Shown: positions 11,639 through 30,324, numbered from the stretch's first letter. The stretch is DNA of 30,324 bases from a virus (IMGVR_UViG_3300025120_000323:1-30324); one strand, 5' to 3'. Numbers and translations are program-made. Notes: a model not told the origin generated them from the letters alone.

Positions 11639-13174
11639 ATGAAGATACTAGACAACAAGGCGCTATTATTAAGATTACGTAGGCCAAAACAAGTTACTAC
11701 AGTAATACCTAAGAGTAAAGAATTAGAAAATAATAAGGTATTAGTTAATTGGGGTATAGAAGAGGCTCATGTACTTAGAAACCTAAACATAAAAGCGCCA
11801 TCTCCTATAGAAGGTACGTACCAATGGACGGGGCAGTACGCACCATTTGACCATCAAAAAACAACATCCTCATTCTTAACACTTAACCGAAAGTCTTTCT
11901 GCTTTAATGAGCAGGGTACAGGCAAGACAGCTAGTGCTATATGGGCATCTGATTTCTTGTTAGATAAAGGGTTAATAAATAGAGTGTTAGTTATATGCCC
12001 ATTGTCAATTATGGATTCAGCATGGCGCAATGATTTGTTTACATTTGCCATGCACCGTACGGTAGACGTAGCCTATGGGTCTGCTAAAAAACGTGAGGAT
12101 ATTATAAACAACGGTTCTGAATACGTGATAATAAATTATGACGGGTTAGCTATTGTAGAGAAGACTATAGCGAATGGAGGCTTTGACTTAATAATAGTAG
12201 ACGAAGCTACTCACTATAAGAACCCGCAGACAAATAGATGGAAAACGCTTAACAGAATTATAAATCCTAATACTTGGTTGTGGATGATGACAGGTACCCC
12301 TGCGGCACAAAGCCCTATAGATGCTTACGGTCTAGCTAAGTTAGTAAATCCTAATAGCGTACCTAGATTCTTAGGTTCATTCCGCGATCAAGTTATGCGT
12401 AAGGTTACAAACTTTAAGTGGGTTCCTAAAGAAACAGCTACCGAGACAGTACACAGGGTACTGCAACCTGCCATAAGGTTTACCAAAGAAGAATGTTTAG
12501 ACTTACCCCCTATGGTATATGTCAAGCGTCAAGTAGAAATGACTCGTCAGCAGAACAAATACTATAAAGAACTGAAGAGTAAGATGGTAATGCAAGCGGC
12601 AGGTGAACAAATATCAGCGGCAAATGCGGCGGTTAATATGAACAAGTTACTACAAATATCAGCAGGTGCAGTGTACACCGATAAAGGTGACGCATTAGAG
12701 TTTGATATTAAGCACCGATATAAGGTATTAAGAGAAGTAATAGATGAGTCTAGTAAAAAAGTATTAATATTTGTGCCCTTTAAACATGTCATAAACATAC
12801 TTACAGACAAGCTACGTAGTGAAGGTATATCAACAGAGGTCATACGTGGAGATGTATCAGCCCCAAAAAGAACAGACATATTTAAAAGATTTCAAGAACA
12901 AGACAACCCTAAAGTATTAGTCATACAACCGCAAGCCGCCGCACATGGAGTTACCTTAACAGCCGCAAACACAGTGGTATGGTGGGGTCCAACAAGTTCT
13001 TTAGAAACTTACGCTCAAGCTAATGCGCGTGTACACAGATCAGGACAAGATCACAAATGTACCGTTGTGCAGCTACAAGGGTCTCACGCAGAGAAACGTG
13101 TTTACTCATTATTAGATAACAGAATTGACGTACACACAAAAATGATTGACCTTTACAAAGAAATACTTGACTAA
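11639..13174 (+). CDS. SNF2-family (superfamily 2) helicase, 511 aa
   Basis: DNA-dependent ATPase/translocase. Motif I is EQGTGKT (residues 91-97), motif II DEAT (188-191), motif III TGTP (218-221), motif V GVTLTAANTVVWWGP and motif VI ARVHRSGQ (463-470). Both RecA-like lobes are present and the order matches phage SNF2-type helicases, including the HRSGQ variant of the final motif. The box is DEAT rather than the DEAH typical of SNF2. The role is likely fork remodelling or strand displacement during replication or recombination. GGAGA lies seven bases before the ATG. It is separated from its upstream neighbour by a 231-bp leader, so it may be regulated on its own. Confidence 0.9.
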   Translation: MKILDNKALLLRLRRPKQVTTVIPKSKELENNKVLVNWGIEEAHVLRNLNIKAPSPIEGTYQWTGQYAPFDHQKTTSSFLTLNRKSFCFNEQGTGKTASAIWASDFLLDKGLINRVLVICPLSIMDSAWRNDLFTFAMHRTVDVAYGSAKKREDIINNGSEYVIINYDGLAIVEKTIANGGFDLIIVDEATHYKNPQTNRWKTLNRIINPNTWLWMMTGTPAAQSPIDAYGLAKLVNPNSVPRFLGSFRDQVMRKVTNFKWVPKETATETVHRVLQPAIRFTKEECLDLPPMVYVKRQVEMTRQQNKYYKELKSKMVMQAAGEQISAANAAVNMNKLLQISAGAVYTDKGDALEFDIKHRYKVLREVIDESSKKVLIFVPFKHVINILTDKLRSEGISTEVIRGDVSAPKRTDIFKRFQEQDNPKVLVIQPQAAAHGVTLTAANTVVWWGPTSSLETYAQANARVHRSGQDHKCTVVQLQGSHAEKRVYSLLDNRIDVHTKMIDLYKEILD

Positions 13175-18438: not shown

Positions 18439-18474
18439 CCCCCTATTCGTTGCCGAGACGGTAGGGGGTTTTTT
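18439..18474 (+). terminator. Rho-independent terminator of the rightward operon
   Basis: CCCCCTA (18439-18445) pairs with TAGGGGG (18462-18468), with an inner CGT/ACG extension, followed at once by six T. This is a strong intrinsic terminator for the replication-side transcript. Read on the other strand there is no T-run after the stem, so it is unlikely to stop leftward transcripts efficiently. The stop codon of the leftward 2035-aa gene lies at 18473-18475, overlapping the end of this T-tract. Confidence 0.9.
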
Positions 18475-21400
18475 ATTGTCTATACTCCATGTTACTTTTC
18501 TGTATTGCATACTTCATAAGTGGGTTTATCGTAACACCATTGTGCATTTTTGCAGTGGTGTCCATATGAGATTCTACAGACTTCATTATATTACTAGGCG
18601 TGACTGCTTCTACTGGATGCCTTTGATTATGCTCATTTATATCATCCATTATGTTAGACATTTCCTCGTAGTCCCCTCTAGTGCTAGCCACATAGAACTT
18701 TTTAGTTAGTCTAGTTCTTTTTTCTGTTATAGCTCGTTCTACACGTTTATTTCTAGCTGTCTGTTCTTGCCTGAAAGTATATTCAGCAGGGGGGAAGCCT
18801 AATGCTTGGGCCGCAAAATCACTTATGGTCATATCATCATAAATAGGGTCGTTTCTTCTAGTACGTATACCTCCTTCTCTAACATACCTACCTACAGTAC
18901 TACGATAAAAATTGGTTAAACCCGCAGGGGCTAGGCTCTCAAGTCCTCGCTCTAATTCTCCATCACGTAAGTCTCCCATACCACGATATAACCTGTTAGC
19001 AGTGCTAAGTGAAGGGCCGCCTAAATAATAAGCTAAACTCTCTTCTAATGATGGGTCTTTATTAAACCTGTTTTCTTGTAATAACAAACCTGTAAGTCTT
19101 ACACGACTAGCTACATCTACACCAGTAAGCTCTGCTATAGCGCCTTTATACCAGCCTTCACCTATATACTTACGAAATGCTGTGTCTGCATCATCTTCTT
19201 CATCGTCAAACCAAAACAAGTCAAACATCATAGATATCGCGCCGTAAAGAGGTATGCCTTGAAGCCCCGCAAAAAATACGGCGGATAGATGTATTCCTGC
19301 TAATTGTTTTAGAGCCATATTTCTTAGCTCACTGTTAGCGTTTTTACCATACATATTATTTATAGCTAACTTACCTGCTTTAATCATAGAGTAATACATT
19401 TGTAGACCATAACTCTTATACATTAAAGCTACACGCCCTATACCTTGTTGAGAAGCACCTACAGCAGTTTCTAATACTGCGCCGCCATTAGTTTCTTGAG
19501 TGAGATATAAAGCTTCTTCCGCCGCCTTTTTCATGCGCTCACTCATACTAGAAGGAACGTCTATAAACGCGCCATCGACCGCGCTGTAGTATTTCTTGTT
19601 ATTATTCATCTTATCTAGTACTAAGTTATAGCTAGCTGTAAGGGCTACTTGCCTATTAAACCTTTCGGCAGAACTAAACATAATCGCGGATACCGCAGAA
19701 GTACCATCTAAAAACTTTAATATCTTATTGCTATTACTCTTGCGCCCTAAATCATCAACTCCTAACTGGTCTTTTAATTCTGAGTGATATATTTGCCCTC
19801 TATCATTAGCCATTTTAACTAAGGGAATCATTCGCTTCATCATAGCTATTTTTTCATTAGCTTTCTTAGCAGTAGGAGAAGTCTTACGTATTTTCTTCTC
19901 CACAGAACTTTTTAAAGTATATACGTCGTCTTTAATATCATAATATTCATCAATAGATAGTTTTGATGCGCCCACAAACTTAGTGGCTTGAGCTATAGCT
20001 TTATTGGCATTGTTTATTCCAAACTTACCTGATAGAAATGGTCCCACCACTAAAGGTATTTGAGACAGGTTAACTAACGCAGAAGATGCATTAAAGCCAA
20101 TGGTGTATATAAATGCTAGTTGGTTTGATCTTTGAAAATACTTTTCAGTAGCTTTATTGTTTGCACCTGTTCGTGCAAACTTGGCTCTCAGCCGCATCTC
20201 TTCTCTTACACTATTAAAAGTGCTTTGTTTTATATCTTTAGGAGTATCCTTAAACTCAATAGCATCTATCTCTTTTTCTATTTGGCGTATATTTGCCACA
20301 GCTTTCATTTTTTCTACTTGAGCACTTAGGTCGTATCCTTTATTTTGCATAGCATTACGTACGTCTTTATCATACCCTAACACGTTTTTACGTTTTTGTA
20401 GAGATTTAGCAAAAGAGGTTTCAGGTAATGTTTCAATAAACAATCGCATTATCTGTTCTTGCACTGCCGAGTCCGCATCCTTACCACTAGCGGATATAAC
20501 ATCTAGTACGTCAGAAACAAAAGACTCAGGAGGAGCGTTTTTAAATCTAGAAGGGTTGGTCTCTCCATCATAAGATACAGGATCACCTACCGTATTAGGA
20601 TCAGACTTTACTTCATCTAACATATTGTCTCTTTGTGTTCTGTTTTCAAACATTAAGAACACAGGCTCTACTCTGCCGTCTATAGTGGTGTCAAAAGATA
20701 TTTTATACTTTCCTTGTCGCACTAACGGGAAATACACTTCTAACTCACGAGCCTGTATTAAACGCTCATTTATTTGTTTCTTTAACCTAGTCTTTTGTGG
20801 AGTTACTTTCCCATCACCTAGAGCATCTATCTCACCATTAATAACCCTAACTAAGGCTTCATACATATTTTTATAGGCAGCACGTTGGGCATTAAATTGA
20901 TCTTGTCCGCTTTTACCTAAAGCATTCCAATCTTTACGTTGAGCTTTCCAGACATCTTCTAAACTATTACCACTAGTATCTGTCTTACCTTTATAATCAC
21001 TTTGAGGTTTGTTAGGGTCTACTTGGTATAAAGTAGCGCCGTAGTCAGAATGGTAAACCAAACGATCTAAAGCTTCTTTAGCTTCTATTCCATTGCTTTT
21101 TACCCAAGCATCATAGTCGGCCAATACAGCTTTTATTTTGTTATTAGCTTTTTGAATGCCTCCTCTTTGCCTTTCAAACGCTACATGTAGTTGTTGTCCT
21201 AAAGAACCAAAACCAACGTTTCTTGCTATATCTCCTAATGCTTGAGAACCAGTAAGTTTGTAAAGCGCTTCTTTTGCTTTTATATTGACTTCTTTACCTG
21301 CATTCAAAAAGTCCACTGCATTTTTTACAAAAAGCTTTTTATTTCCAGAAGATATAGACCTCTGAATATCCCCCATGTCTTTTAACATATCTTTAACACC

Positions 21401-24400
21401 ATCAGAAGTAGCATCTAACATACCTGAATTTCTTGTATTAGGACTAGGAGATAGTGAAGCCATTATTACAGCATCAACAGCATCCAAAGCGGAGTTAGCT
21501 GACTTAGTATTCATACCAATTAGTTTACGTATGTAGTTAGTAATAGAACGGAAGAACCTTTGTAAGGCACTTATTTTCTCACCTTTAGGGTTCATAGAAG
21601 CTAAAGTACGTTGAAAGCTAGCATTGCTAAACGTCTCTGCTACAAAATCATTGACTCCTTCTGCGCCATAAGCAGTGCCTAGCTGATCTTGTACATCATA
21701 ATATAATTTACTAAGTTGTTTGGTAACAGGGTGTGATTTGTTATTAAGCACATCAAATGTGGCCGCGTGAGTAGCTTCATGTAGTAACGAGTGTACGGTG
21801 GCGCCTTTGTTAGGATCTAAAGTTATAGTTTTAGTATTTGGATTAAACGTAGATACTGCCTTACCCCCTACATTACCTACTCCTATAGACACTCCGTCCA
21901 TATTATTAGACAACGCTCTAGCAATTTGAGTAATGCGCTTGCTTGTAGAAGTCTTAGCTACATCTTGCAATGCGCCTTTTAAGTCGTTGTTTTTGACCTT
22001 TGTTTTAATAGAGGTAGACAAATCATTATCTAAAGCCACTTCTTCTTTTGAATTTAGTTCTAGATTAAGCACATCAATGTTACCACCTCGTTTTAAAAAG
22101 GTGTCAGTGTCTTTCGCTATCTTTTCTCTTAACTGCGCAGGGGACATGGTTTCATCTAGTGCAGGTTTTGCATTCTTACCTCTTTTACCCTGCACTTTTT
22201 CTACTGCGTCAGCCACACGCGCTAACTCTTGTTCTTCTTTATTTAATTTTCTCTGCGCTTTAGGAGTTTCTTTAACTACTTTCTCAGCTTTCTTTACAGG
22301 AGCTTTTCTGTCAGGTACTACCTGTACCTTACCCTTAGTAGCTTTTTCTACTGCTACAGCAGTCTTAGCATCACGTTGCTTTACTTTGGTATCTTCTTGT
22401 TCTTGTTTAGCTCGCGCTGTAACATCTTTCTCTACTTTAGTTGATTCTTTTTGTTGCTCTACGACGCGCTTATCTACTTCAGCTTTAGCATCAGGACTTA
22501 GGTTTTTCTCTATCCACTGTAATGTAGCCTTAGTGTTTTCTCCTCCCGTCCCTGCAAACTTGGCTTTCTCGGAAGTAGGAGTGCCTTTTTGTACTCTAAA
22601 CTTAGGTGTGTTTTCTGCAATCTCAAAAGCTATAGCTGTAAATGCATCAGCAGGACGCTTAAATCTTTTAATGTATGTCTGAGCAGTTTGTTCAATACCT
22701 TTTTTATCACGAGGTATCTTCTTACCTAGTAACGTATTTATAGCTGTTACATCTTTAGGGTTAGTAAACTCTGCGCCACGAGGTACGGCAGTGGGAAACT
22801 CTATACTTCCATCTATGTTAGAACTGGTATCAACAGGAGCTTCTACTTTAGTCTTAACTTGTTTAGGTGTAGTAACTTTCTTTGGAGTCACCGGGGGAGA
22901 CGTAGAAACTTCTCCAGTATCAGTTGCGTTGAGTCTTTGTTTAGGTTTAGTTTTTAAAGAGTCAGGTACCAGAGCTTGCGTTGCTTCTGATATATTGGCA
23001 TCTTTTAATATCTTTCCTACGTCTGCCATTTCAGGCGCACTGTATAATGTCTTAGGTTCAGCGACGGTATCAGCTAATGTTTGAGGTCTAGCTTCAGGGC
23101 TAACGTCTCCAGTTTGAGCTGCACTGCGCCTCTGAGGTATTTGAGCTTCCATAGAAGCAGTGTCTGCATTTCTATCTACATCTTTAGTAAGTCGTGTACC
23201 TGTTTCCGCTTTTTGGAAGTTGACTGCTTTTTGTATGGCTCCAGCTTCGGTGTTTGTTACTTTTGTATCTGTAACTCCTAGGTCTTTTAATTCTTTTTGA
23301 AAAGCTTTAGTTAAAGTGTTGTAGTTATTTGTAGGGTTGGACTCAATTACTTCTTGAAGCACAGCTTCTCTACGCCGAGTACGGTCAGTTAGTGTACGCT
23401 CTTGTCTACGCCCTTCTAAACTTTCTAAATTAGACTCAAAACGTTCAATCGTTTTAAGATCTTCTATATTTTGTTTTTCTTCAGCATCAAACTGCTTTAT
23501 CATATCTAGCTGTTCAGGGGCATCTATATTATATTTTTCAGCCTCTTCTCTAGCTTTACCTACTTCTAACTCTTGAGTAGTTGGTCCTACACGGTTTATA
23601 TCAGATAATTCTGCGGCATCAAGCTCAGTAGAGAACATATCTATCTGCTCTTCTCCAAGCTCTGTACCTCTTAGTACTCTAGCTTCTTCTTCAGTTACGT
23701 TTATATCTTCATCAGTTACTTCTGTTGGCGCTTCACCGCCCTTTGAAGTACGCGCCCGCCCTTTAACAAGTACGTCTGCTAACGCTTGAACTATAGCACC
23801 CGCACCACCACCAATAGTAGCTTCATCAAGTACACCTGCATCAATAAGCTCTTTTTCAGGGTTATAACCTTGCTCAGTAAGATTTTGTAGTATAGCGGCA
23901 GAGGCTTCTTGTGCGCCCTCAAATACTCCTGTAACCCCTGCACTGCGGACTCGATCCATAATTCCGTTTATAGATTTAGGGCCAAGCTTATCTAATACCT
24001 TGGTAATTCCGGGAATTTTTAAGCCTTTAGCAACTCTACCTAGAGGAGTAAGTTCAAGTAGACCTATACCAAAACCTTTAGTAGCAGCAATATTTCGTTG
24101 TTCTTCAGTAGCACCTGCGGCACGAGCACGTTCACTAGCTTCACCAGAACCCGCGCTACCAACTATAGCACCTGCGGCGGGTAATGCGGCAGGGCCAAGA
24201 AAAGCTGTAGGTAGTAAAGCGCCTATAGAACCAACACCAGAAGCCAACTTATAAGATAAAGACTCTTTGTCTCCACCTTCGGGACGCAAGAAATTAGCCG
24301 CGTTCTGTATTTTTTCACGGGCTTTTAATTCCTCTTCTTCTTCTAATAGTGCAATAGCGCCAAGTCCAGCAGACTCATATAATCCTACTGCACCTGCACC

Positions 24401-24580
24401 AAGCCCTGTAGCTACGTTTTCAAAAAACCCTGCTTTTTCTTCTTCTACGGCAGGGCCATACAACTTTTCTAATTCTGAAGTTTTTTTAGCTATTTCTACA
24501 GACAGAAATCTAACTGCTTGTTCGTCTCCTGCGGATTTAGCATTTGCAACAGCTCTTTGTAATTCTGAAAGAGTAAACAT
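18473..24580 (-). CDS. Giant polyvalent virion protein with HExxH motif, 2035 aa
   Basis: The N-terminus has two Gly/Ala-rich hydrophobic stretches (about 52-80 and 113-145) that could insert in membranes. A long charged, low-complexity Lys/Glu region (about 550-860) follows. LHEATHAAT then gives a zinc-protease motif (His934, Glu935, His938), with NDFVAET supplying a likely third ligand Glu982. The C-terminal region (about 1480-1800: RTGANNKATEKYF, ALMYKSYGLQMYYSM) resembles the LPD38/PLxRFG-type domain of phage large polyvalent proteins, with a hydrophobic AVFFAGLQGIPLYGAI segment. Such proteins travel inside capsids and help genome ejection. Only a weak AGG element precedes the ATG. It is probably a late gene. 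The domain naming is from memory; the HExxH is seen directly. Confidence 0.75.
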   Translation of the reverse strand: MFTLSELQRAVANAKSAGDEQAVRFLSVEIAKKTSELEKLYGPAVEEEKAGFFENVATGLGAGAVGLYESAGLGAIALLEEEEELKAREKIQNAANFLRPEGGDKESLSYKLASGVGSIGALLPTAFLGPAALPAAGAIVGSAGSGEASERARAAGATEEQRNIAATKGFGIGLLELTPLGRVAKGLKIPGITKVLDKLGPKSINGIMDRVRSAGVTGVFEGAQEASAAILQNLTEQGYNPEKELIDAGVLDEATIGGGAGAIVQALADVLVKGRARTSKGGEAPTEVTDEDINVTEEEARVLRGTELGEEQIDMFSTELDAAELSDINRVGPTTQELEVGKAREEAEKYNIDAPEQLDMIKQFDAEEKQNIEDLKTIERFESNLESLEGRRQERTLTDRTRRREAVLQEVIESNPTNNYNTLTKAFQKELKDLGVTDTKVTNTEAGAIQKAVNFQKAETGTRLTKDVDRNADTASMEAQIPQRRSAAQTGDVSPEARPQTLADTVAEPKTLYSAPEMADVGKILKDANISEATQALVPDSLKTKPKQRLNATDTGEVSTSPPVTPKKVTTPKQVKTKVEAPVDTSSNIDGSIEFPTAVPRGAEFTNPKDVTAINTLLGKKIPRDKKGIEQTAQTYIKRFKRPADAFTAIAFEIAENTPKFRVQKGTPTSEKAKFAGTGGENTKATLQWIEKNLSPDAKAEVDKRVVEQQKESTKVEKDVTARAKQEQEDTKVKQRDAKTAVAVEKATKGKVQVVPDRKAPVKKAEKVVKETPKAQRKLNKEEQELARVADAVEKVQGKRGKNAKPALDETMSPAQLREKIAKDTDTFLKRGGNIDVLNLELNSKEEVALDNDLSTSIKTKVKNNDLKGALQDVAKTSTSKRITQIARALSNNMDGVSIGVGNVGGKAVSTFNPNTKTITLDPNKGATVHSLLHEATHAATFDVLNNKSHPVTKQLSKLYYDVQDQLGTAYGAEGVNDFVAETFSNASFQRTLASMNPKGEKISALQRFFRSITNYIRKLIGMNTKSANSALDAVDAVIMASLSPSPNTRNSGMLDATSDGVKDMLKDMGDIQRSISSGNKKLFVKNAVDFLNAGKEVNIKAKEALYKLTGSQALGDIARNVGFGSLGQQLHVAFERQRGGIQKANNKIKAVLADYDAWVKSNGIEAKEALDRLVYHSDYGATLYQVDPNKPQSDYKGKTDTSGNSLEDVWKAQRKDWNALGKSGQDQFNAQRAAYKNMYEALVRVINGEIDALGDGKVTPQKTRLKKQINERLIQARELEVYFPLVRQGKYKISFDTTIDGRVEPVFLMFENRTQRDNMLDEVKSDPNTVGDPVSYDGETNPSRFKNAPPESFVSDVLDVISASGKDADSAVQEQIMRLFIETLPETSFAKSLQKRKNVLGYDKDVRNAMQNKGYDLSAQVEKMKAVANIRQIEKEIDAIEFKDTPKDIKQSTFNSVREEMRLRAKFARTGANNKATEKYFQRSNQLAFIYTIGFNASSALVNLSQIPLVVGPFLSGKFGINNANKAIAQATKFVGASKLSIDEYYDIKDDVYTLKSSVEKKIRKTSPTAKKANEKIAMMKRMIPLVKMANDRGQIYHSELKDQLGVDDLGRKSNSNKILKFLDGTSAVSAIMFSSAERFNRQVALTASYNLVLDKMNNNKKYYSAVDGAFIDVPSSMSERMKKAAEEALYLTQETNGGAVLETAVGASQQGIGRVALMYKSYGLQMYYSMIKAGKLAINNMYGKNANSELRNMALKQLAGIHLSAVFFAGLQGIPLYGAISMMFDLFWFDDEEDDADTAFRKYIGEGWYKGAIAELTGVDVASRVRLTGLLLQENRFNKDPSLEESLAYYLGGPSLSTANRLYRGMGDLRDGELERGLESLAPAGLTNFYRSTVGRYVREGGIRTRRNDPIYDDMTISDFAAQALGFPPAEYTFRQEQTARNKRVERAITEKRTRLTKKFYVASTRGDYEEMSNIMDDINEHNQRHPVEAVTPSNIMKSVESHMDTTAKMHNGVTINPLMKYAIQKSNMEYRQ

Positions 24581-24601: not shown

Positions 24602-26623
24602 TTAAGGTTTAGCGTACTGTTGCATTATACTTTGTAATTGAGATTGGTTTTGACTAGCCTGTTGTCTTGAACTATTAGTGCTTGTATTTGTATTGCTATT
24701 AGTTTGTTGTAAAGAATAACCACCTTGAGTAGCTATTTGTTGTAAGAAACTGTTAAGGATTGTTATAGCCTCATCTATATCGGCTTTTTCTAATAGTCTT
24801 TGATATTGCGATTCGTATCTTTCTAACAATCCTTGTTCTTCAAGAGTCAAACCTTCTTTAGCTTCCTTAGTTCTTAAAATTGTAAGTTGTGGGTTTATAG
24901 TCTTAAAAAATTCTTCACGTAACTTAATTGACTTGTCATGTAAAGAAGCTATCTCGTTAGCGATTTGAGAAGCGCTAGCTTGTTGTTGTACAATTTTATT
25001 AAGGTTAGCGGCGGTATCTGCTTTTAAAGCATCAATTTTATTTTTTATACCGTTTTGATTGTTTGCATATAATCTATCTGCTTCTTTATTATACATAGTT
25101 ATATCATCAGCAGAAATCCGCGCTAAAGTAGCCATAGACTTTTGACGCTCATCCATAACTCTACCCATAGCACGACCTGCTTCGGCGTTTATTTCTGTTG
25201 CTAACTTAGTGTCATTATCCATACGTTGTTTTTCTAAGGCCAAACGTTGATCAATACTAGCTTGCCTGCTTGCTACAGTGTTTGCATCGAACTTACCTCT
25301 AGCAATGCTAGCCCCACGCCCAGTACCACCTTCAATCAGCCCTCTAACACCCGCAGCGGCTCTTTCTTTTCTTAGGCGCTCAGGATCTAACAGTTCTTTA
25401 TCTAAAGCTTCTTTTTCTTTTAAGTACTTGTTGTACACAGCTTCTTGCCCAGCTCTGTCAAACCCACCTTTAGATTTGTCGCCACTGCTCATCCTAGTAA
25501 GTTCGTCTTGCTGTATTTTTGCAGGGTCTTTAGCCATATCCTTTTTAAGTGCGGCAGTAACTTCAGGTAACGCATCCGACACTTGTGTTCTACTTATTCC
25601 TGATGTGTCAGGGGTTGTAGACAGTCCAGCTACATCTAAACCGACACGAGATAAGTTTTGATTAACTTGTGATATACCATCAGAAGGAGGTTGAGAATCG
25701 TCTTGAGAGGTAGTTTGAGATCCAACTTGAGGAGCAAACACTCCTAAACCACCCATATCGGGTATTGTTTTTGGTGCAATAGTAGAGACAGGTGTTTGAG
25801 CTTGTTGTCCAGCAATTCCTGTAGCAGGAGGCGTATCAGCAGGCTGTGTAGTACTATCTTTAGTTTGGTCTTGTGGAGGTAAAGCGGCTTTACCAGCTTT
25901 AAGTTTATTTAATTGCTGTAATAAAGGTTCTCTTGATAGGGGTGGCGCGGCGTTAACACGGTCTTGCATACTATTAATAGCAGCATCAAACTCTTCAATG
26001 GTAGTAGGAGTTGGCTTAGAAAAAGCGTCTTTAATACCTGACACTGCGGTAGGGATGCTAGCGCTTTCCATTAAAGTTTTTTGTACTTTAACAGGCAATG
26101 CTTCAAAAGACTTTCTATCCATCCCTATAGCTTCTAACATTCTGTCAGATACTACACCGCCTCTTTGATAACCAATAATCCCGCCGTTAGCCATTTGCAT
26201 AGGAGGACGGGGAGCAGCGCGTAATCCCGCAGATGCGCCTTGAGGCATAGGGGGTCGTTGTCCTTGTTGTGGAGGTTTTGCTGGAGACATTTGTTGTTTT
26301 CTTTTCTTGTCTCTTTCACCTAAAATACCAGCCGTTTGTTTTACCAAGTCGTCTTTAGTACGCGCCATAGCATTTTGTTCTAACTGTTCGACTATAGTTG
26401 CAGGGCTTTGTTCCATAGATAGTCTAAGCTGGTTTTCAGCCATAGCTTTTTCAGAAGCTACTTTTTGTAAAGCAAGAGCATTCATTAGATCAGGAGTTAC
26501 TCCTTTACCAATATCAGCTTTCTGCTTTTGTTGTTCTTTTCCCATAGCTTGAGGATTTGCTCTAAGAACATTAGCTTGTTTGTCTATTCGGTTATCTAAA
26601 GTACCTAAACCCTGCTGTAACAT
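24602..26623 (-). CDS. Coiled-coil virion-associated protein with MANGGI motif, 673 aa
   Basis: AGGAG seven bases before the ATG gives a secure start. The N-terminal 115 residues are helical and Gln/Lys-rich. A Pro/Gln-rich linker (QQGQRPPMPQGASAG) leads to QMANGGIIGYQRGGVV (about 143-157). A disordered Pro/Thr/Gln-rich stretch (about 240-330) follows, then a long helical coiled-coil region (about 400-630) and a Gln/Ser/Asn-rich tail ending QQYAKP. No enzyme motif is seen. It lies between the 528-aa GG-motif protein and the giant polyvalent protein, so a tail or internal virion role (ejection or scaffold type) is likely. It shares the MAxGGI motif with its neighbour. Confidence 0.65.
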   Translation of the reverse strand: MLQQGLGTLDNRIDKQANVLRANPQAMGKEQQKQKADIGKGVTPDLMNALALQKVASEKAMAENQLRLSMEQSPATIVEQLEQNAMARTKDDLVKQTAGILGERDKKRKQQMSPAKPPQQGQRPPMPQGASAGLRAAPRPPMQMANGGIIGYQRGGVVSDRMLEAIGMDRKSFEALPVKVQKTLMESASIPTAVSGIKDAFSKPTPTTIEEFDAAINSMQDRVNAAPPLSREPLLQQLNKLKAGKAALPPQDQTKDSTTQPADTPPATGIAGQQAQTPVSTIAPKTIPDMGGLGVFAPQVGSQTTSQDDSQPPSDGISQVNQNLSRVGLDVAGLSTTPDTSGISRTQVSDALPEVTAALKKDMAKDPAKIQQDELTRMSSGDKSKGGFDRAGQEAVYNKYLKEKEALDKELLDPERLRKERAAAGVRGLIEGGTGRGASIARGKFDANTVASRQASIDQRLALEKQRMDNDTKLATEINAEAGRAMGRVMDERQKSMATLARISADDITMYNKEADRLYANNQNGIKNKIDALKADTAANLNKIVQQQASASQIANEIASLHDKSIKLREEFFKTINPQLTILRTKEAKEGLTLEEQGLLERYESQYQRLLEKADIDEAITILNSFLQQIATQGGYSLQQTNSNTNTSTNSSRQQASQNQSQLQSIMQQYAKP

Positions 26624-26645
26624 TTGTATCTCCTAAAAACTTTTA

Positions 26646-28232
26646 TTAACCACCAAATAAATCTGTATATAAATCAGCTAGACTTTTTGTTGTTCCTGCA
26701 AGCTGTGCGGCTTGACTAGGAGCGTTGTAAGAAACTGATTGCGCTTCTAACGGCAATCCCTGTAGCAATGACTGCATATATTGCACTTGCTTGTAGGGGA
26801 AGTCTCGTTCTTCTCTAAACTGAGCGTAATCTGCTGCCATACCTTCAGACTCAATACCTCGTTGAGTGGCACCTGCGGCTTCTTGCCTACCAAGTACATC
26901 AAACCCGTATTGATTAGCCATGTTCTGAGCTTCTATATTACGTCCTTGCTCAGTGTTAAACTGTTGTTGTGCTCTGTCATAAGCTTGGGCATACCCCTGT
27001 CCAGTTATATTAGCTAAGTTAGATTGCAAATTACGTTGTCCTTCCATGTCCATAAGAGCCTGACGTGAACCACCAAATGCACCTGCTTGTGTCATTCTAC
27101 CTGCGTTAGCTACACGGTCTATTTCAGCTTGACGCCTAGCCTCATCTATTTGAGGGTTAAGTGACGCCATAAGATAAGGGTTCATATATTGTTGAGCTTG
27201 CTCTGCGCCAAACGTTTGGGGGGTATACGTACCCATATTGTCAGGAGTAGCTAAAGAACCAATACCAGAAAATGCTTGGTTTTGTAGGTTAGATGTACCT
27301 GCGCTAAGTGGTCCTTCATAGGATTGATAGGCTTGATTACCTAAAGCCGCGCCTTTACCTAACATATCAGTTACATAATCACCTGCCCAACTAGATAAAG
27401 AAGATTCTTTACCTGCATATTCCCCTACCATAGGGTCAGTTCCGCCTGTAGAAGTGTCCCCCCCTCCTACTACTACTTCTCCCGCAGTTTGAAAATTAGT
27501 TTTAGGAATAGCATTTTGGTAGACAGAGCCGCCATAGTTATACGCTTGCGTAATTCCACCACCTGCCATTTTAGGCATAAACTTGTTAGGGTCTATTTGT
27601 TTACCTTGTTTGGGATTTCCTGTACGTGCTTCTCGTACGTTATCCATCATACCGTGCAATTGTTGTGCGCCTGCATCAGAGTTGCCATTACCTAAATGAC
27701 TAACAACATCAGCAGGAATAACAAACTCACCGTCACTAAGACGGGCTTCTTGTGTTCCATCAATACGCGCCGGAACTTGATCAGCCATTCCATCAGTCTT
27801 ACCTCCTAAATAATAACCTTTGTTAGTGGATGCAATACCTCCCATAGCCATGCCTGTAGGAGGTAAATTCTTTTGTGCTAGTTGAGCAGCTTGAGCTTGA
27901 GCTTTTGCCTGCGCTTCAGCTACGCTAGGCGGGGAAGTATCAGGGCGTTTTGCAAACTGCATGTCACTAAAATACCTACGTCCCGCACTCCCCGGTCTAC
28001 GTGGCTCTTGGCCTTCAGGAGTAGGTTGCATAGGCACTCGTTCACGAACCGCCTGTAACTCAGGTATTTTACCTTGATAACCTATTTTTGGCACTTCAGG
28101 TTGAAAATAATCATTAAGTCCACTAGTAGCCGCACCCTGTAATATGCCACTAACTAGGTCATTACTTAAAAAATTATTAACACTAGAATTATCGTCTGTT
28201 ATAGCGTCTACTAAATCCGCATACCAACCCAT
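26646..28232 (-). CDS. GG-motif virion or injection protein, 528 aa
   Basis: The ATG at 28232 forms a TGATG junction with the upstream gene and has GGAGA eight bases before it. Two turns, GMAMGGI (about 128-133) and KMAGGGI (about 222-228), flank a conserved-looking segment GMADQVPARIDG...ARLSDGEFVIPADVVSHLG (about 149-182) that I associate with marine phage virion proteins. The C-terminal half (about 335-500) is helical with QAGAFGGSRQALMDMEGQRN and GYAQAYDRAQQQF, typical of phage DNA-injection or tail-associated proteins. It has no membrane segment. It is likely a minor virion protein; the exact location in the particle is unknown. Confidence 0.65.
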   Translation of the reverse strand: MGWYADLVDAITDDNSSVNNFLSNDLVSGILQGAATSGLNDYFQPEVPKIGYQGKIPELQAVRERVPMQPTPEGQEPRRPGSAGRRYFSDMQFAKRPDTSPPSVAEAQAKAQAQAAQLAQKNLPPTGMAMGGIASTNKGYYLGGKTDGMADQVPARIDGTQEARLSDGEFVIPADVVSHLGNGNSDAGAQQLHGMMDNVREARTGNPKQGKQIDPNKFMPKMAGGGITQAYNYGGSVYQNAIPKTNFQTAGEVVVGGGDTSTGGTDPMVGEYAGKESSLSSWAGDYVTDMLGKGAALGNQAYQSYEGPLSAGTSNLQNQAFSGIGSLATPDNMGTYTPQTFGAEQAQQYMNPYLMASLNPQIDEARRQAEIDRVANAGRMTQAGAFGGSRQALMDMEGQRNLQSNLANITGQGYAQAYDRAQQQFNTEQGRNIEAQNMANQYGFDVLGRQEAAGATQRGIESEGMAADYAQFREERDFPYKQVQYMQSLLQGLPLEAQSVSYNAPSQAAQLAGTTKSLADLYTDLFGG

Positions 28233-30324
28233 CAATCTTCTCCAAGTAACTTTAATAGTTCATCATTTCTTTTTAACAATCCACCTTTTGCAGCGGCTAC
28301 TCCAAACCCACTAGGACCATACCCTCCAAAAGGACTGGCATAAAATTGCTCTTGTTGAGGTGTAGCAAATATACTATCAAAGTCGTATAAATAGTCTATA
28401 TCTGCAACGCCCATTTGTTGTGTAGTAGCCACAGTAGGTTGAGCCGCTTGTTGTGCAAACTGTTCACGGGCTAAGTCATCGAACTTATTTAACTTAGCAT
28501 ACCTTTCTGCGTCTGCCTGTAGTTCTAGTTGTCGATCTTGCGCTAACTTTTGTTCTACATCAAACTGTTGTTCTTGTTCTAATTTTTGTTGCGCTGCTAT
28601 CGCATCATTGTATGCATATAACCCTGTAGCTGCAAACTGCGAATCAGGATCAAATACAACATCTTGACCTGCTAGAGACTGTTCTAGCATAATTTGGTCG
28701 TTAATGTCAATTACACCATCATTGTTAACATCATACTGTAATTGTTGATCGGTTGGAACAAAAGAAGTAGGGTCAGTAAGTACTTCTTGTTCTGCAATTA
28801 TAGAGGCTACAAAATCTATATCTGCATCGGTTACTTCTTGCGCAGGTTTACCTACAAAATTAGCTACTGTTTCTATATCAAACCCTAAGTCTGCTAAACC
28901 TTCGTCGAATCTAGCTAGTAGGTTCTCTTCTGTAGTACCTAATGCTTCTAGTAAACTATCTTCTGTAGTACCTAGTTCAGCAGATACATCAGATATAGCT
29001 TTAGATAAAGCTTCATCACGGTCTATACCTGCATTTTCGTTTTCTTGTAATTTTTCTAATATGTTAGTTTCTAATTCACTAACTTGAGTTTCAACACCTT
29101 CAAACCGTGTTTTAAAATCTTCTCGTATATCATCTTCAGTCTTACCTAACTGAGTAAGTAAGTCATCTTTAGTAGTTCCTAACTCAGCAGATACATCATC
29201 TATTGCTTGTGCAAGTGCGTCAGCTCTATCTATACCTGCATCTTCGTACTCTTTCATCCTATCTAGAATGGTAGTTTCTAGTTCACTTACTTGAGTTTCA
29301 ACACTTCCAAAACGAGTTTCAAAATCGTCTCGTATATTTTCTTCAGTTTTCCCTAACTGAGTAAGTAAGTCTTCTTTAGTAGTGTCAAGATCTCCTGCTA
29401 CGTCTTCTATAGCTAAAGCTAATGCAGTATCTGCATCTACATTAATATCTTGGTACTCTTTCATCCTATCTAGGATGGTAGTTTCTAGTTCACTTACTTG
29501 AGTTTCAACACTTCCAATAGCAGTGGTTAAATCTCCTACATCTACCTCAAGTTGATCAGCAACTGCTTGTATAGCGTCATCTCTTTCAACTCCGGCTTCT
29601 ACTAACGTGTCAATAGCTGTTTGCGCATCAGCAATAGCATCAGCAGTTAGCCCAACAGCGGTTTCTACATCAGCAATAGCACTCGCATTACTATCTAAAA
29701 GAGTAGTTAAAGATTCTACATCCGTACCAAGTTGAGTCGCTAAATCTGCAATTGCTTGGTCTCGCTCAACACCATCCTCGATCATACCGTCTAGCGTAGT
29801 TTGAATGCCTGTAATAGATGTAGCATTTGCATTGAGCAGTTCAGTTAGGGATTCTACATCTGTGCCAAGCTGAGTAGCTAGACTTGCAATAGCCTCATCA
29901 CGAGATACGTCACCTTCGAGCATACCGTCTAACGTAGTTTGTATACCTGTAATAGATTTAGCATTTGCATTGAGCAGTTCAGTTAATGCAGTGGTATCTA
30001 AACCTTGTTGTTCAGCAATAGCTGCAATAGCTTCATCGCGTGATACACCTGATTTAACCAAAGCATCTACACTTGCTTGTACACCTGTAATAGATTTAGC
30101 ATTTGCATTGAGCAGTTCAGTTAGTGCAGTGGTATCTAAACCTTGTTGTTCAGCAATAGCTGCAATAGCTTCATCTCGTGAAGTACCCGCTTCTACTAAA
30201 GCATCTACACTTGCTTGTACACCTGTAATAGATTTAGCATTTGCATTGAGCAGTTCAGTTAGTGCAGTGGTATCTAAACCTTGTTGTTCAGCAATAGCTG
30301 CAATAGCTTCATCTCGTGAAGTAC
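28232..30324 (-). CDS. Repeat-rich virion or fibre-like protein, partial (697 aa visible)
   Basis: The reading frame stays open to the right edge of the window, so the N-terminus is missing; a TTG at 30061 inside it is not a credible start. The visible part opens with at least four 46-residue repeats (SRDEAIAAIAEQQGL, then LTELLNANAKSITG), passes through degenerate units, and then two 69-residue repeats (VETQVSELETTILDRMKEY). The C-terminal third has a dockerin-like calcium loop DVNNDGVIDINDQ, a Gln-rich helix (QKLEQEQQFDVEQKLAQDRQ) and an AAAKGGLLKR end. All of this suggests a long helical, rod-like structural protein such as a tail fibre or tape-like internal protein. The stop overlaps the next start (TGATG). 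Confidence 0.7.
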   Translation of the reverse strand, partial: TSRDEAIAAIAEQQGLDTTALTELLNANAKSITGVQASVDALVEAGTSRDEAIAAIAEQQGLDTTALTELLNANAKSITGVQASVDALVKSGVSRDEAIAAIAEQQGLDTTALTELLNANAKSITGIQTTLDGMLEGDVSRDEAIASLATQLGTDVESLTELLNANATSITGIQTTLDGMIEDGVERDQAIADLATQLGTDVESLTTLLDSNASAIADVETAVGLTADAIADAQTAIDTLVEAGVERDDAIQAVADQLEVDVGDLTTAIGSVETQVSELETTILDRMKEYQDINVDADTALALAIEDVAGDLDTTKEDLLTQLGKTEENIRDDFETRFGSVETQVSELETTILDRMKEYEDAGIDRADALAQAIDDVSAELGTTKDDLLTQLGKTEDDIREDFKTRFEGVETQVSELETNILEKLQENENAGIDRDEALSKAISDVSAELGTTEDSLLEALGTTEENLLARFDEGLADLGFDIETVANFVGKPAQEVTDADIDFVASIIAEQEVLTDPTSFVPTDQQLQYDVNNDGVIDINDQIMLEQSLAGQDVVFDPDSQFAATGLYAYNDAIAAQQKLEQEQQFDVEQKLAQDRQLELQADAERYAKLNKFDDLAREQFAQQAAQPTVATTQQMGVADIDYLYDFDSIFATPQQEQFYASPFGGYGPSGFGVAAAKGGLLKRNDELLKLLGED
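28678..28735 (-). other. Dockerin-like calcium-binding loop in the repeat protein
   Basis: The encoded segment YDVNNDGVIDINDQIMLEQ has Asp/Asn at positions 1, 3, 5 and 9 and Asp at 12 of an EF-hand-type loop (DVNNDGVIDIND), followed by a helix. This is the pattern of a single dockerin F-hand. Two such motifs make a true dockerin and only one is clear here, so calcium binding is plausible and cohesin binding is not implied. Confidence 0.6.
29027..29440 (-). repeat. Two 207-bp coding repeats (69 aa each)
   Basis: Units at 29234-29440 and 29027-29233 encode similar 69-residue blocks sharing TT-K-DLLTQLGKTE, a DDF/EDF-TRF segment and VETQVSELET. Flanking diverged half-units share the same elements. 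They are much less alike in DNA than the 138-bp units to the right. Unit sizes of 46 and 69 residues are both multiples of 23, hinting at a common 23-residue building block. Confidence 0.75.
29771..30324 (-). repeat. Tandem 138-bp coding repeats (46 aa each)
   Basis: At least four head-to-tail units occur with exact 138-bp phase (boundaries near 30322, 30184, 30046 and 29908). Bases 30061-30186 and 30199-30324 are identical over 126 bp. Units further left diverge step by step. The array runs off the window edge, so the copy number is unknown. It encodes the repeating part of the fibre-like protein. Confidence 0.9.

What the first reader, a model, noticed from the sequence alone, without database searches (positions are those of the whole stretch)
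18473..24580. 2035-aa polyvalent protein with metalloprotease motif and membrane-like segments
It combines hydrophobic N-terminal segments, a charged disordered middle, an HEATH site with a likely third ligand and a PLxRFG/LPD38-like C-terminal region. Proteins like this are thought to be injected with the genome. A protease delivered early could cut a host defence or envelope protein. Together with the early HExxH-VWA gene, the phage encodes two different predicted zinc proteases.
Basis: partly seen in the sequence, partly recalled or inferred. Interest (0 to 1): 0.65.

Follow-up and report, generated by a model that had tools for sequence, protein, structure and literature searches.

The report
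Ejected phage metalloprotease with clamp-like motifs
This giant phage protein belongs to a known kind of protein carried in the phage head and shot into the bacterium with the DNA; [quoted passage not shown]

Summary
The ORF is real (minus strand, 2035 aa). HEATH is residues 934-938, and Glu982 fits the third zinc ligand. The C-terminus is a PLxRFG domain (NCBIfam, 283 bits, cut-off 100). HExxH plus the downstream Glu is intact in 61 of 63 non-redundant full-length relatives; the other two are remote relatives without the domain. The protease domain is homologous to, or shares a fold with, solved ejected virion proteins (PhiM1 gp48, an internal virion protein, N4 virion RNA polymerase). A virion-packaged, ejected protein is therefore the best reading. 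This is the known MPTase theme of polyvalent proteins (Iyer 2017). Cutting a host defence protein is possible but has no direct support; the published proposal is self-processing.

New here: the disordered stretch before the protease is studded with Q-x-[DE]-[LM]-F. There are 83 sites in 41 of 61 relatives, against 1.4 expected by shuffling, in at least 31 unrelated flanking contexts. They are nearly absent from the rest of the protein and from neighbouring genes. The window has QIDMF (312-316) plus a degenerate copy. The motif matches the beta-sliding-clamp-binding motif of bacterial DnaE. Clamp binding itself is untested.

The parts
18473..24580 (-). whole ORF, 2035 aa, ejected internal virion (polyvalent, PLxRFG) protein
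   Evidence: 58%-identical full-length relative L001/L021
23711..24580 (-). residues 1-290: conserved helical, Ala/Gly-rich N-terminal module with two weak hydrophobic segments (121-141, 254-272); contains the GEASERAR signature
   Evidence: pLDDT about 80 over most of 1-190; family-wide conservation; hydropathy
22781..23998 (-). residues 195-600: largely disordered, charged region that carries the motifs
   Evidence: pLDDT below 50 at 195-320 and 464-603
23633..23647 (-). residues 312-316 QIDMF, clamp-binding-like motif (context VLRGTELGEEQIDMFSTELDAAE, identical in L001 across the flanks)
23498..23512 (-). residues 357-361 QLDMI, degenerate second copy (context APEQLDMI)
   Evidence: QLDMV in L001, QPDMV/QRDLV at similar places in relatives
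22421..22759 (-). residues 608-720: small conserved helical domain (FxGTGGxNTKATLxWxExNLS)
21461..22003 (-). residues 860-1040: zincin-like metallopeptidase (MPTase) domain
21767..21781 (-). residues 934-938 HEATH, zinc-binding and catalytic motif
21635..21637 (-). Glu982, predicted third zinc ligand
18476..21313 (-). residues 1090-2035: large helical PLxRFG C-terminal domain (DarB C-terminus-like)
   Evidence: NF032893, phrog_10089, alignment A1, model
20711..20734 (-). residues 1283-1290 YFPLVRQG, the PLxRxG signature
24602..30322 (-). three upstream genes in the same direction (673 aa, 529 aa, at least 696 aa running off the window), probable virion proteins of the same late operon
   Evidence: same order and similar sizes upstream of the relative in L001; no informative family match

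Best explanation
The gene encodes the largest ejected (internal virion) protein of an uncultivated short-tailed-type phage. It is packed in the head and passed into the cell with the DNA. Layout from N to C: (1) an Ala/Gly-rich helical module, probably for membrane contact; (2) a long disordered arm carrying clamp-binding-like motifs; (3) a zincin-like metallopeptidase domain with an intact HExxH...E site; (4) a roughly 950-residue helical PLxRFG carrier domain. Proposed action: after ejection the disordered arm reaches the cytoplasm and binds the host beta sliding clamp (DnaN). This would compete with host Pol III and repair proteins, or tether the incoming complex to the replisome, before any phage gene is expressed. 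The protease most likely acts on the polypeptide itself or a bound partner, for example to free the arm from the carrier. Shown: architecture, conservation of the zinc site, homology to ejection proteins, motif enrichment. Inferred: packaging of this protein (about 0.85), protease active (about 0.6), self-processing rather than host cleavage (about 0.4 against 0.2, the rest inactive or other), motifs bind DnaN (about 0.45).
For: PLxRFG match at 2.8 times the cut-off. A profile of 49 MPTase domains hits solved virion proteins: 9sfn internal virion protein E=1.1e-6 and PhiM1 ejection protein gp48 (8vb2) E=1.6e-5. The best structural matches of the model are N4 vRNAP gp50 9pnr/9pnt, and the matched range is its HExxH C1 domain (Z 7.8, 153-156 residues aligned). 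Viral-structure matches include internal core proteins of T7-like phages and phi14:2. Model topology is three strands, a helix with HEATH and a later helix with E982, as Iyer describes. Zinc site intact in 61 of 61 family members that have the domain. Motif Q.[DSE][LMI]F was fixed before the relatives were fetched: 83 hits in 41/61 proteins in the disordered middle against a shuffle mean of 1.4 (maximum 6 in 500 shuffles); best permuted control 20, median 1; C-terminal half 2 against 4.1 expected. At least 31 independent flank contexts. Neighbouring ORFs gave 9 hits in 385,838 residues, 6 of them one conserved C-terminal motif of another protein that is not clamp-like in the window. DnaE1 clamp motifs conserve Q1 and LF with position 2 free (PMC3919608); E. 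coli Pol III alpha uses QADMF and QLDLF is the strongest peptide (PMC11139829).
Against: No virion proteomics and no binding or protease data. 20 of 61 relatives lack the strict motif (15 lack even a relaxed form). Pro and Gly dominate position 2, which is not the highest-affinity choice. Some sites share an extension (F-x-x-E-L) that known clamp motifs are not reported to have. The host is unknown: no relative in genome contigs and no isolate found that shares the N-terminal half. The window protein itself has only one strict motif. Z 7.8 to N4 is near the level that unrelated rows reach; the sequence-profile hits are the stronger evidence.
Confidence: 0.5

Rival explanations
1. One reading: an injected protease that cuts a host defence or envelope protein early in infection.
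For: Intact zinc site kept in all family members with the domain; homology to ejection proteins; Iyer et al. allow action after injection.
Against: No host substrate or target-binding domain is identifiable; published reasoning favours self-processing; the clamp-like motifs point to the replisome if to any host target.
Confidence: 0.2
2. The Q-x-[DE]-[LM]-F sites are a short linear motif for another partner, for example a phage portal/core or packaging protein or another host protein, and not for the sliding clamp.
For: Position 2 is mostly Pro/Gly and position 3 almost only Asp/Glu, narrower than needed for clamp binding; some copies continue F-x-x-E-L; short motifs that load cargo into heads are a plausible alternative (inference).
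Against: Positions 1, 4 and 5 match the clamp motif, and the free position 2 matches DnaE1; exact QLDLF, QLSLF and QLELF occur; proteins with no motif still have the whole carrier, so the motif is unlikely to be needed for packaging.
Confidence: 0.35
3. The metallopeptidase fold is a structural relic without activity, as it seems to be in T7-like ejection proteins.
For: In the T7-like relatives HExxH remains but the third ligand is lost: PhiM1 gp48 EFISQ, 9sfn ELVAW, Luutsna EFVAG; N4 vRNAP shows no degradation.
Against: The third ligand is intact in every family member here and in Rhizobium and crAss-like relatives; strict maintenance of both His and both Glu argues for zinc use.
Confidence: 0.25
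4. Self-processing protease: it separates the N-terminal arm from the PLxRFG carrier in the head or after ejection (the protease part of the best explanation, taken alone).
For: Proposed for this domain class, with P1 DdrB processing as precedent; the domain sits exactly between cargo and carrier, as C1 does in N4.
Against: N4 vRNAP with a related domain is packaged uncleaved; no cleavage site can be predicted here.
Confidence: 0.4

Closest known systems
PLxRFG domain proteins / DarB-like antirestriction C-terminus (NF032893, phrog_10089)
   Same: About 900 C-terminal residues, co-linear, 22-26% identical to isolates such as Skulduggery, Parlo, douglas 12A4
   Different: Several of those carry other cargo in the same chain, in Skulduggery a transglycosylase, SNF2-type helicase and DNA methylase; here the cargo is a disordered arm, and SNF2 is a separate early gene
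Zincin-like MPTase domains of polyvalent proteins (Iyer et al. 2017, PMC5512222)
   Same: Three-stranded sheet, HExxH helix, second helix with Glu; found in large injected phage proteins
   Different: No adjacent recognised effector enzyme; which of their 12 clades it belongs to was not tested
N4 virion RNA polymerase gp50
   Same: N-terminal membrane module, low-complexity linker, cargo, HExxH C1 domain, large helical C2
   Different: No RNA polymerase; disordered arm with clamp-like motifs in its place; homology of C2 to PLxRFG not shown
T7-type ejectosome proteins (PhiM1 gp48, phiKMV-like internal core proteins)
   Same: Homologous MPTase-like domain in solved ejected virion proteins
   Different: Those examined have lost the third zinc ligand; here it is intact
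Beta-clamp-binding motifs of DnaE, UmuC, Hda, transposases
   Same: Q-x-x-[LM]-F with free second position, in disordered or exposed segments
   Different: Several copies in one phage virion protein, Pro/Gly common at position 2; no binding data
Staphylococcal phage Twort gp168 and G1 gp240 (DnaN inhibitors)
   Same: Phage proteins aimed at the sliding clamp to stop host replication (PMC3594737)
   Different: Reported as host-replication shut-off proteins, not described there as ejected virion components; no sequence comparison was made here

Membership tests
PLxRFG domain-containing protein (NF032893) | Score above curated cut-off (100 bits) | tested here: met
   282.9 bits, E 5.6e-84
Large polyvalent protein-associated domain 38 (LPD38, Pfam) | Match to the Pfam model | tested here: inconclusive
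   No such match at E<=0.1, but several matches of the model in the viral structure library are named large polyvalent protein-associated domain proteins
Zincin-like MPTase of polyvalent proteins | HExxH helix plus Glu on a following helix, three-stranded sheet | tested here: met
   Conservation and model topology
Zincin-like MPTase of polyvalent proteins | Zinc binding and proteolytic activity | not testable with these tools
   needs biochemistry
Polyvalent protein (Iyer 2017) | Two or more functionally unrelated domains in one large phage protein | tested here: inconclusive
   MPTase and PLxRFG domains found, but only one recognisable enzyme
Ejected internal virion protein | Homology to proteins solved in virions or ejectosomes | tested here: met
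   9sfn E 1.1e-6, 8vb2 gp48 E 1.6e-5; N4 gp50 9pnr Z 7.8
Ejected internal virion protein | Physical presence in the virion and in the infected cell | not testable with these tools
   needs proteomics of an isolate
DarB antirestriction protein | SNF2 helicase and DNA methylase modules in the same chain | tested here: not met
   Only the C-terminal region matches; no such Pfam domain in the chain
Beta-sliding-clamp binder | Q-x-x-[LM]-F motif in a disordered segment, conserved | tested here: met
   QIDMF 312-316; family enrichment 83 against 1.4 expected
Beta-sliding-clamp binder | Direct binding to DnaN | not testable with these tools
   needs binding assay

The most novel reading that the evidence does not exclude
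Phages of this group carry in the head a protein with a multivalent, disordered clamp-binding arm joined to an active zinc protease. On ejection it docks on the host sliding clamp and cuts or displaces replisome proteins before any phage gene is expressed.
Probability: 0.17. Interest if true: 0.85.

Novelty: new variant of a known kind. Interest (0 to 1): 0.55.

Why it matters
What ejected virion proteins do once inside the cell is largely open. If these arms bind DnaN, it would be a case of host replication being contacted by a protein that arrives with the phage DNA, and it can be tested with short peptides. The comparison also suggests one carrier (metallopeptidase plus helical C-terminal domain) with exchangeable N-terminal cargo, and that the protease site is kept intact in some lineages and has decayed in T7-like ones.

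Tried and rejected
Pfam SutA RNAP-binding match at 813-837 (24 bits, below cut-off): not found in the 58%-identical relative, treated as a charge-composition artefact. Lysogenic relatives to learn the host: two scans of genome contigs found none. Isolates with the same N-terminal half: none in three further searches. Motif in a second protein (FATPQQxSLFxSPY at the C-terminus of the upstream ~1700-aa protein): in the window it reads QEQFYASP, so it is not a clamp-type motif and was not counted as support. Whole-model Foldseek against the PDB gave no significant match. The N-terminal model (870 aa) gave no viral match below E 0.001 and no convincing PDB match. Alignments of very distant relatives were too diverse to seed scans. 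Literature: no paper found that links a clamp-binding motif with a phage virion protein, within the open-access library only.

Full report
Observation. The ORF spans 24580 to 18473 on the minus strand and gives 2035 aa. NCBIfam's PLxRFG model matches at 282.9 bits against a cut-off of 100, and PHROGs match the C-terminal half to DarB-like proteins. Pfam gives no LPD38 match. The N-terminal hydrophobic stretches are weak and Ala/Gly-rich, so 'membrane-like' is fair but not strong.

Conservation. One close relative (58% identity) came from IMG/VR at first. It reads HESAH and EEFVSEAF, so the site is kept. Three further scans gave a large family: 163 loci, 78 clusters at 70%, 63 full-length representatives. 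HExxH occurs in 61 of 63. The two misses are remote C-terminal relatives without the domain. All 61 have the second glutamate. One scan used the pattern EFVAE[AT]F and would favour intact sites, so I repeated the count without it: 26 of 28 representatives intact, the same two missing; two further loci outside the representatives looked like misses only because they read EFTAE. The chance of an HExxH in a shuffled family member is 0.8%.

Distant relatives of the protease domain. The same HExxH-...-E pattern is in Rhizobium phage RHph_TM29 and crAss-like phages cr272_1 and cr4_1 (the latter two read with TAG as Gln), and, with the second Glu replaced by Gly, in the T7-like phage Luutsna-6. A profile of 49 family domains searched against PDB sequences hits an internal virion protein (9sfn, E 1.1e-6), the PhiM1 ejection protein gp48 (8vb2, E 1.6e-5) and a lethal-factor-type zincin (about 1e-4). 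In the two virion proteins HExxH is kept but the second Glu is not (ELVAW, EFISQ). The text of the PhiM1 paper contains neither 'protease' nor 'peptidase'. The predicted structure of residues 851-2035 has pLDDT 70-88 over the protease domain, with three strands, the HExxH helix and the later Glu helix. Its best structural matches are N4 vRNAP 9pnr and 9pnt, over N4 residues 2124-2357, which is the C1 HExxH domain described in the N4 paper. Z is 7.8, which by itself is middling; with the sequence-profile hits it is convincing for a shared ejected-protein module.

Architecture. N4 vRNAP is described as a lipid-binding N-terminal domain, a low-complexity linker, the polymerase, a linker, the HExxH C1 domain and the helical C2 domain. 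The window protein has the same plan: helical hydrophobic N-terminus (1-190 mostly confidently folded), disorder at 195-320 and 464-603, a small helical domain at 608-750, the MPTase domain (860-1040) and a helical PLxRFG domain (1090-2035). In isolates the PLxRFG carrier bears other cargo: in Skulduggery a transglycosylase, helicase and methylase, in RHph_TM29 an inorganic pyrophosphatase. Whether C2 of N4 and PLxRFG are homologous was not shown.

The motif. Comparing the two closest relatives, the stretch VLRGTELGEEQIDMFSTELDAAE stands out as unchanged within diverged disorder. QIDMF resembles QADMF, the internal clamp-binding motif of Pol III alpha. I fixed the pattern Q.[DSE][LMI]F and only then fetched the family. 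In the middle region (residue 250 to 70 before HExxH) of 61 proteins there are 83 matches in 41 proteins; composition shuffles give 1.4 on average and never more than 6 in 500; of the other permuted patterns the best has 20 matches and the median is 1; the C-terminal part has 2 against 4.1 expected. Neighbouring ORFs have 9 in 385,838 residues, 6 of them one conserved motif of a different protein that is not clamp-like in the window. The 83 sites fall into 31 groups by flanking sequence, so the enrichment is not one inherited site. The derived profile is Q, then P/G/L/others, then D/E, L/M, F, often P/A/G. Published clamp motifs are Q-aliphatic-x-[LM]-[FL], with QLDLF strongest and position 2 tolerant; in DnaE1 the motif is reasonably conserved except at the second position. 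The match is good but not perfect: Gly at position 2 lowers affinity, and some copies continue F-x-x-E-L.

Mechanism. The phage encodes its own family A DNA polymerase, DUF927 primase/helicase, single-strand binding protein, exonuclease and SNF2 helicase, and none of the window's other proteins has the strict motif. Clamp binding, if real, would thus more likely disturb or occupy host replication than serve the phage polymerase. Two or more motifs per chain would suit a dimeric ring. Phage proteins against DnaN are known from staphylococcal phages. The protease could free the arm from the carrier, as proposed generally for such domains, could act on a bound partner, or could be silent. The sequence cannot decide among these.

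Verdict. A real and correctly described protein of a known kind, with a well-supported ejected role, an intact protease site of unknown substrate, and a new, statistically strong motif pattern that suggests, but does not prove, sliding-clamp binding.

Noticed in passing
   Followed up: partly
28232-30322 (-): Open-ended upstream gene is built of repeated ~45-aa coiled-coil-like units (SRDEAIAAIAEQQGLDTTALTELLNANAKSITG), then one dockerin/EF-hand-like DVNNDGVIDINDQ; the L001 counterpart has many thrombospondin-type DxDxDGxxD repeats.
   Followed up: no
28232-30322 (-), C-terminus: Conserved C-terminal motif IFATPQQxxxFxSPY plus a DELLRLLGE-like tail in the upstream ~1400-1800-aa protein across several relatives.
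   Followed up: partly
L006, L007: crAss-like phages cr272_1 and cr4_1 carry the same MPTase pattern (HEIVH/HEILH ... EFIAE/EFLAE) in large genes with in-frame TAG read as Gln; one is annotated as exonuclease.
   Followed up: partly
L003:4530-11516: RHph_TM29 homologue has an inorganic pyrophosphatase domain (PF18823, 162 bits) just before the MPTase domain.
   Followed up: no
PDB 8vb2 and 9sfn: Solved T7-type ejection/internal virion proteins contain a zincin-like domain with HExxH but without the second Glu; the PhiM1 paper does not mention protease or peptidase.
   Followed up: partly
11639-13174: SNF2 helicase is a separate early gene here, whereas in DarB-like isolates such as Skulduggery a helicase is fused inside the polyvalent protein.
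   Followed up: no
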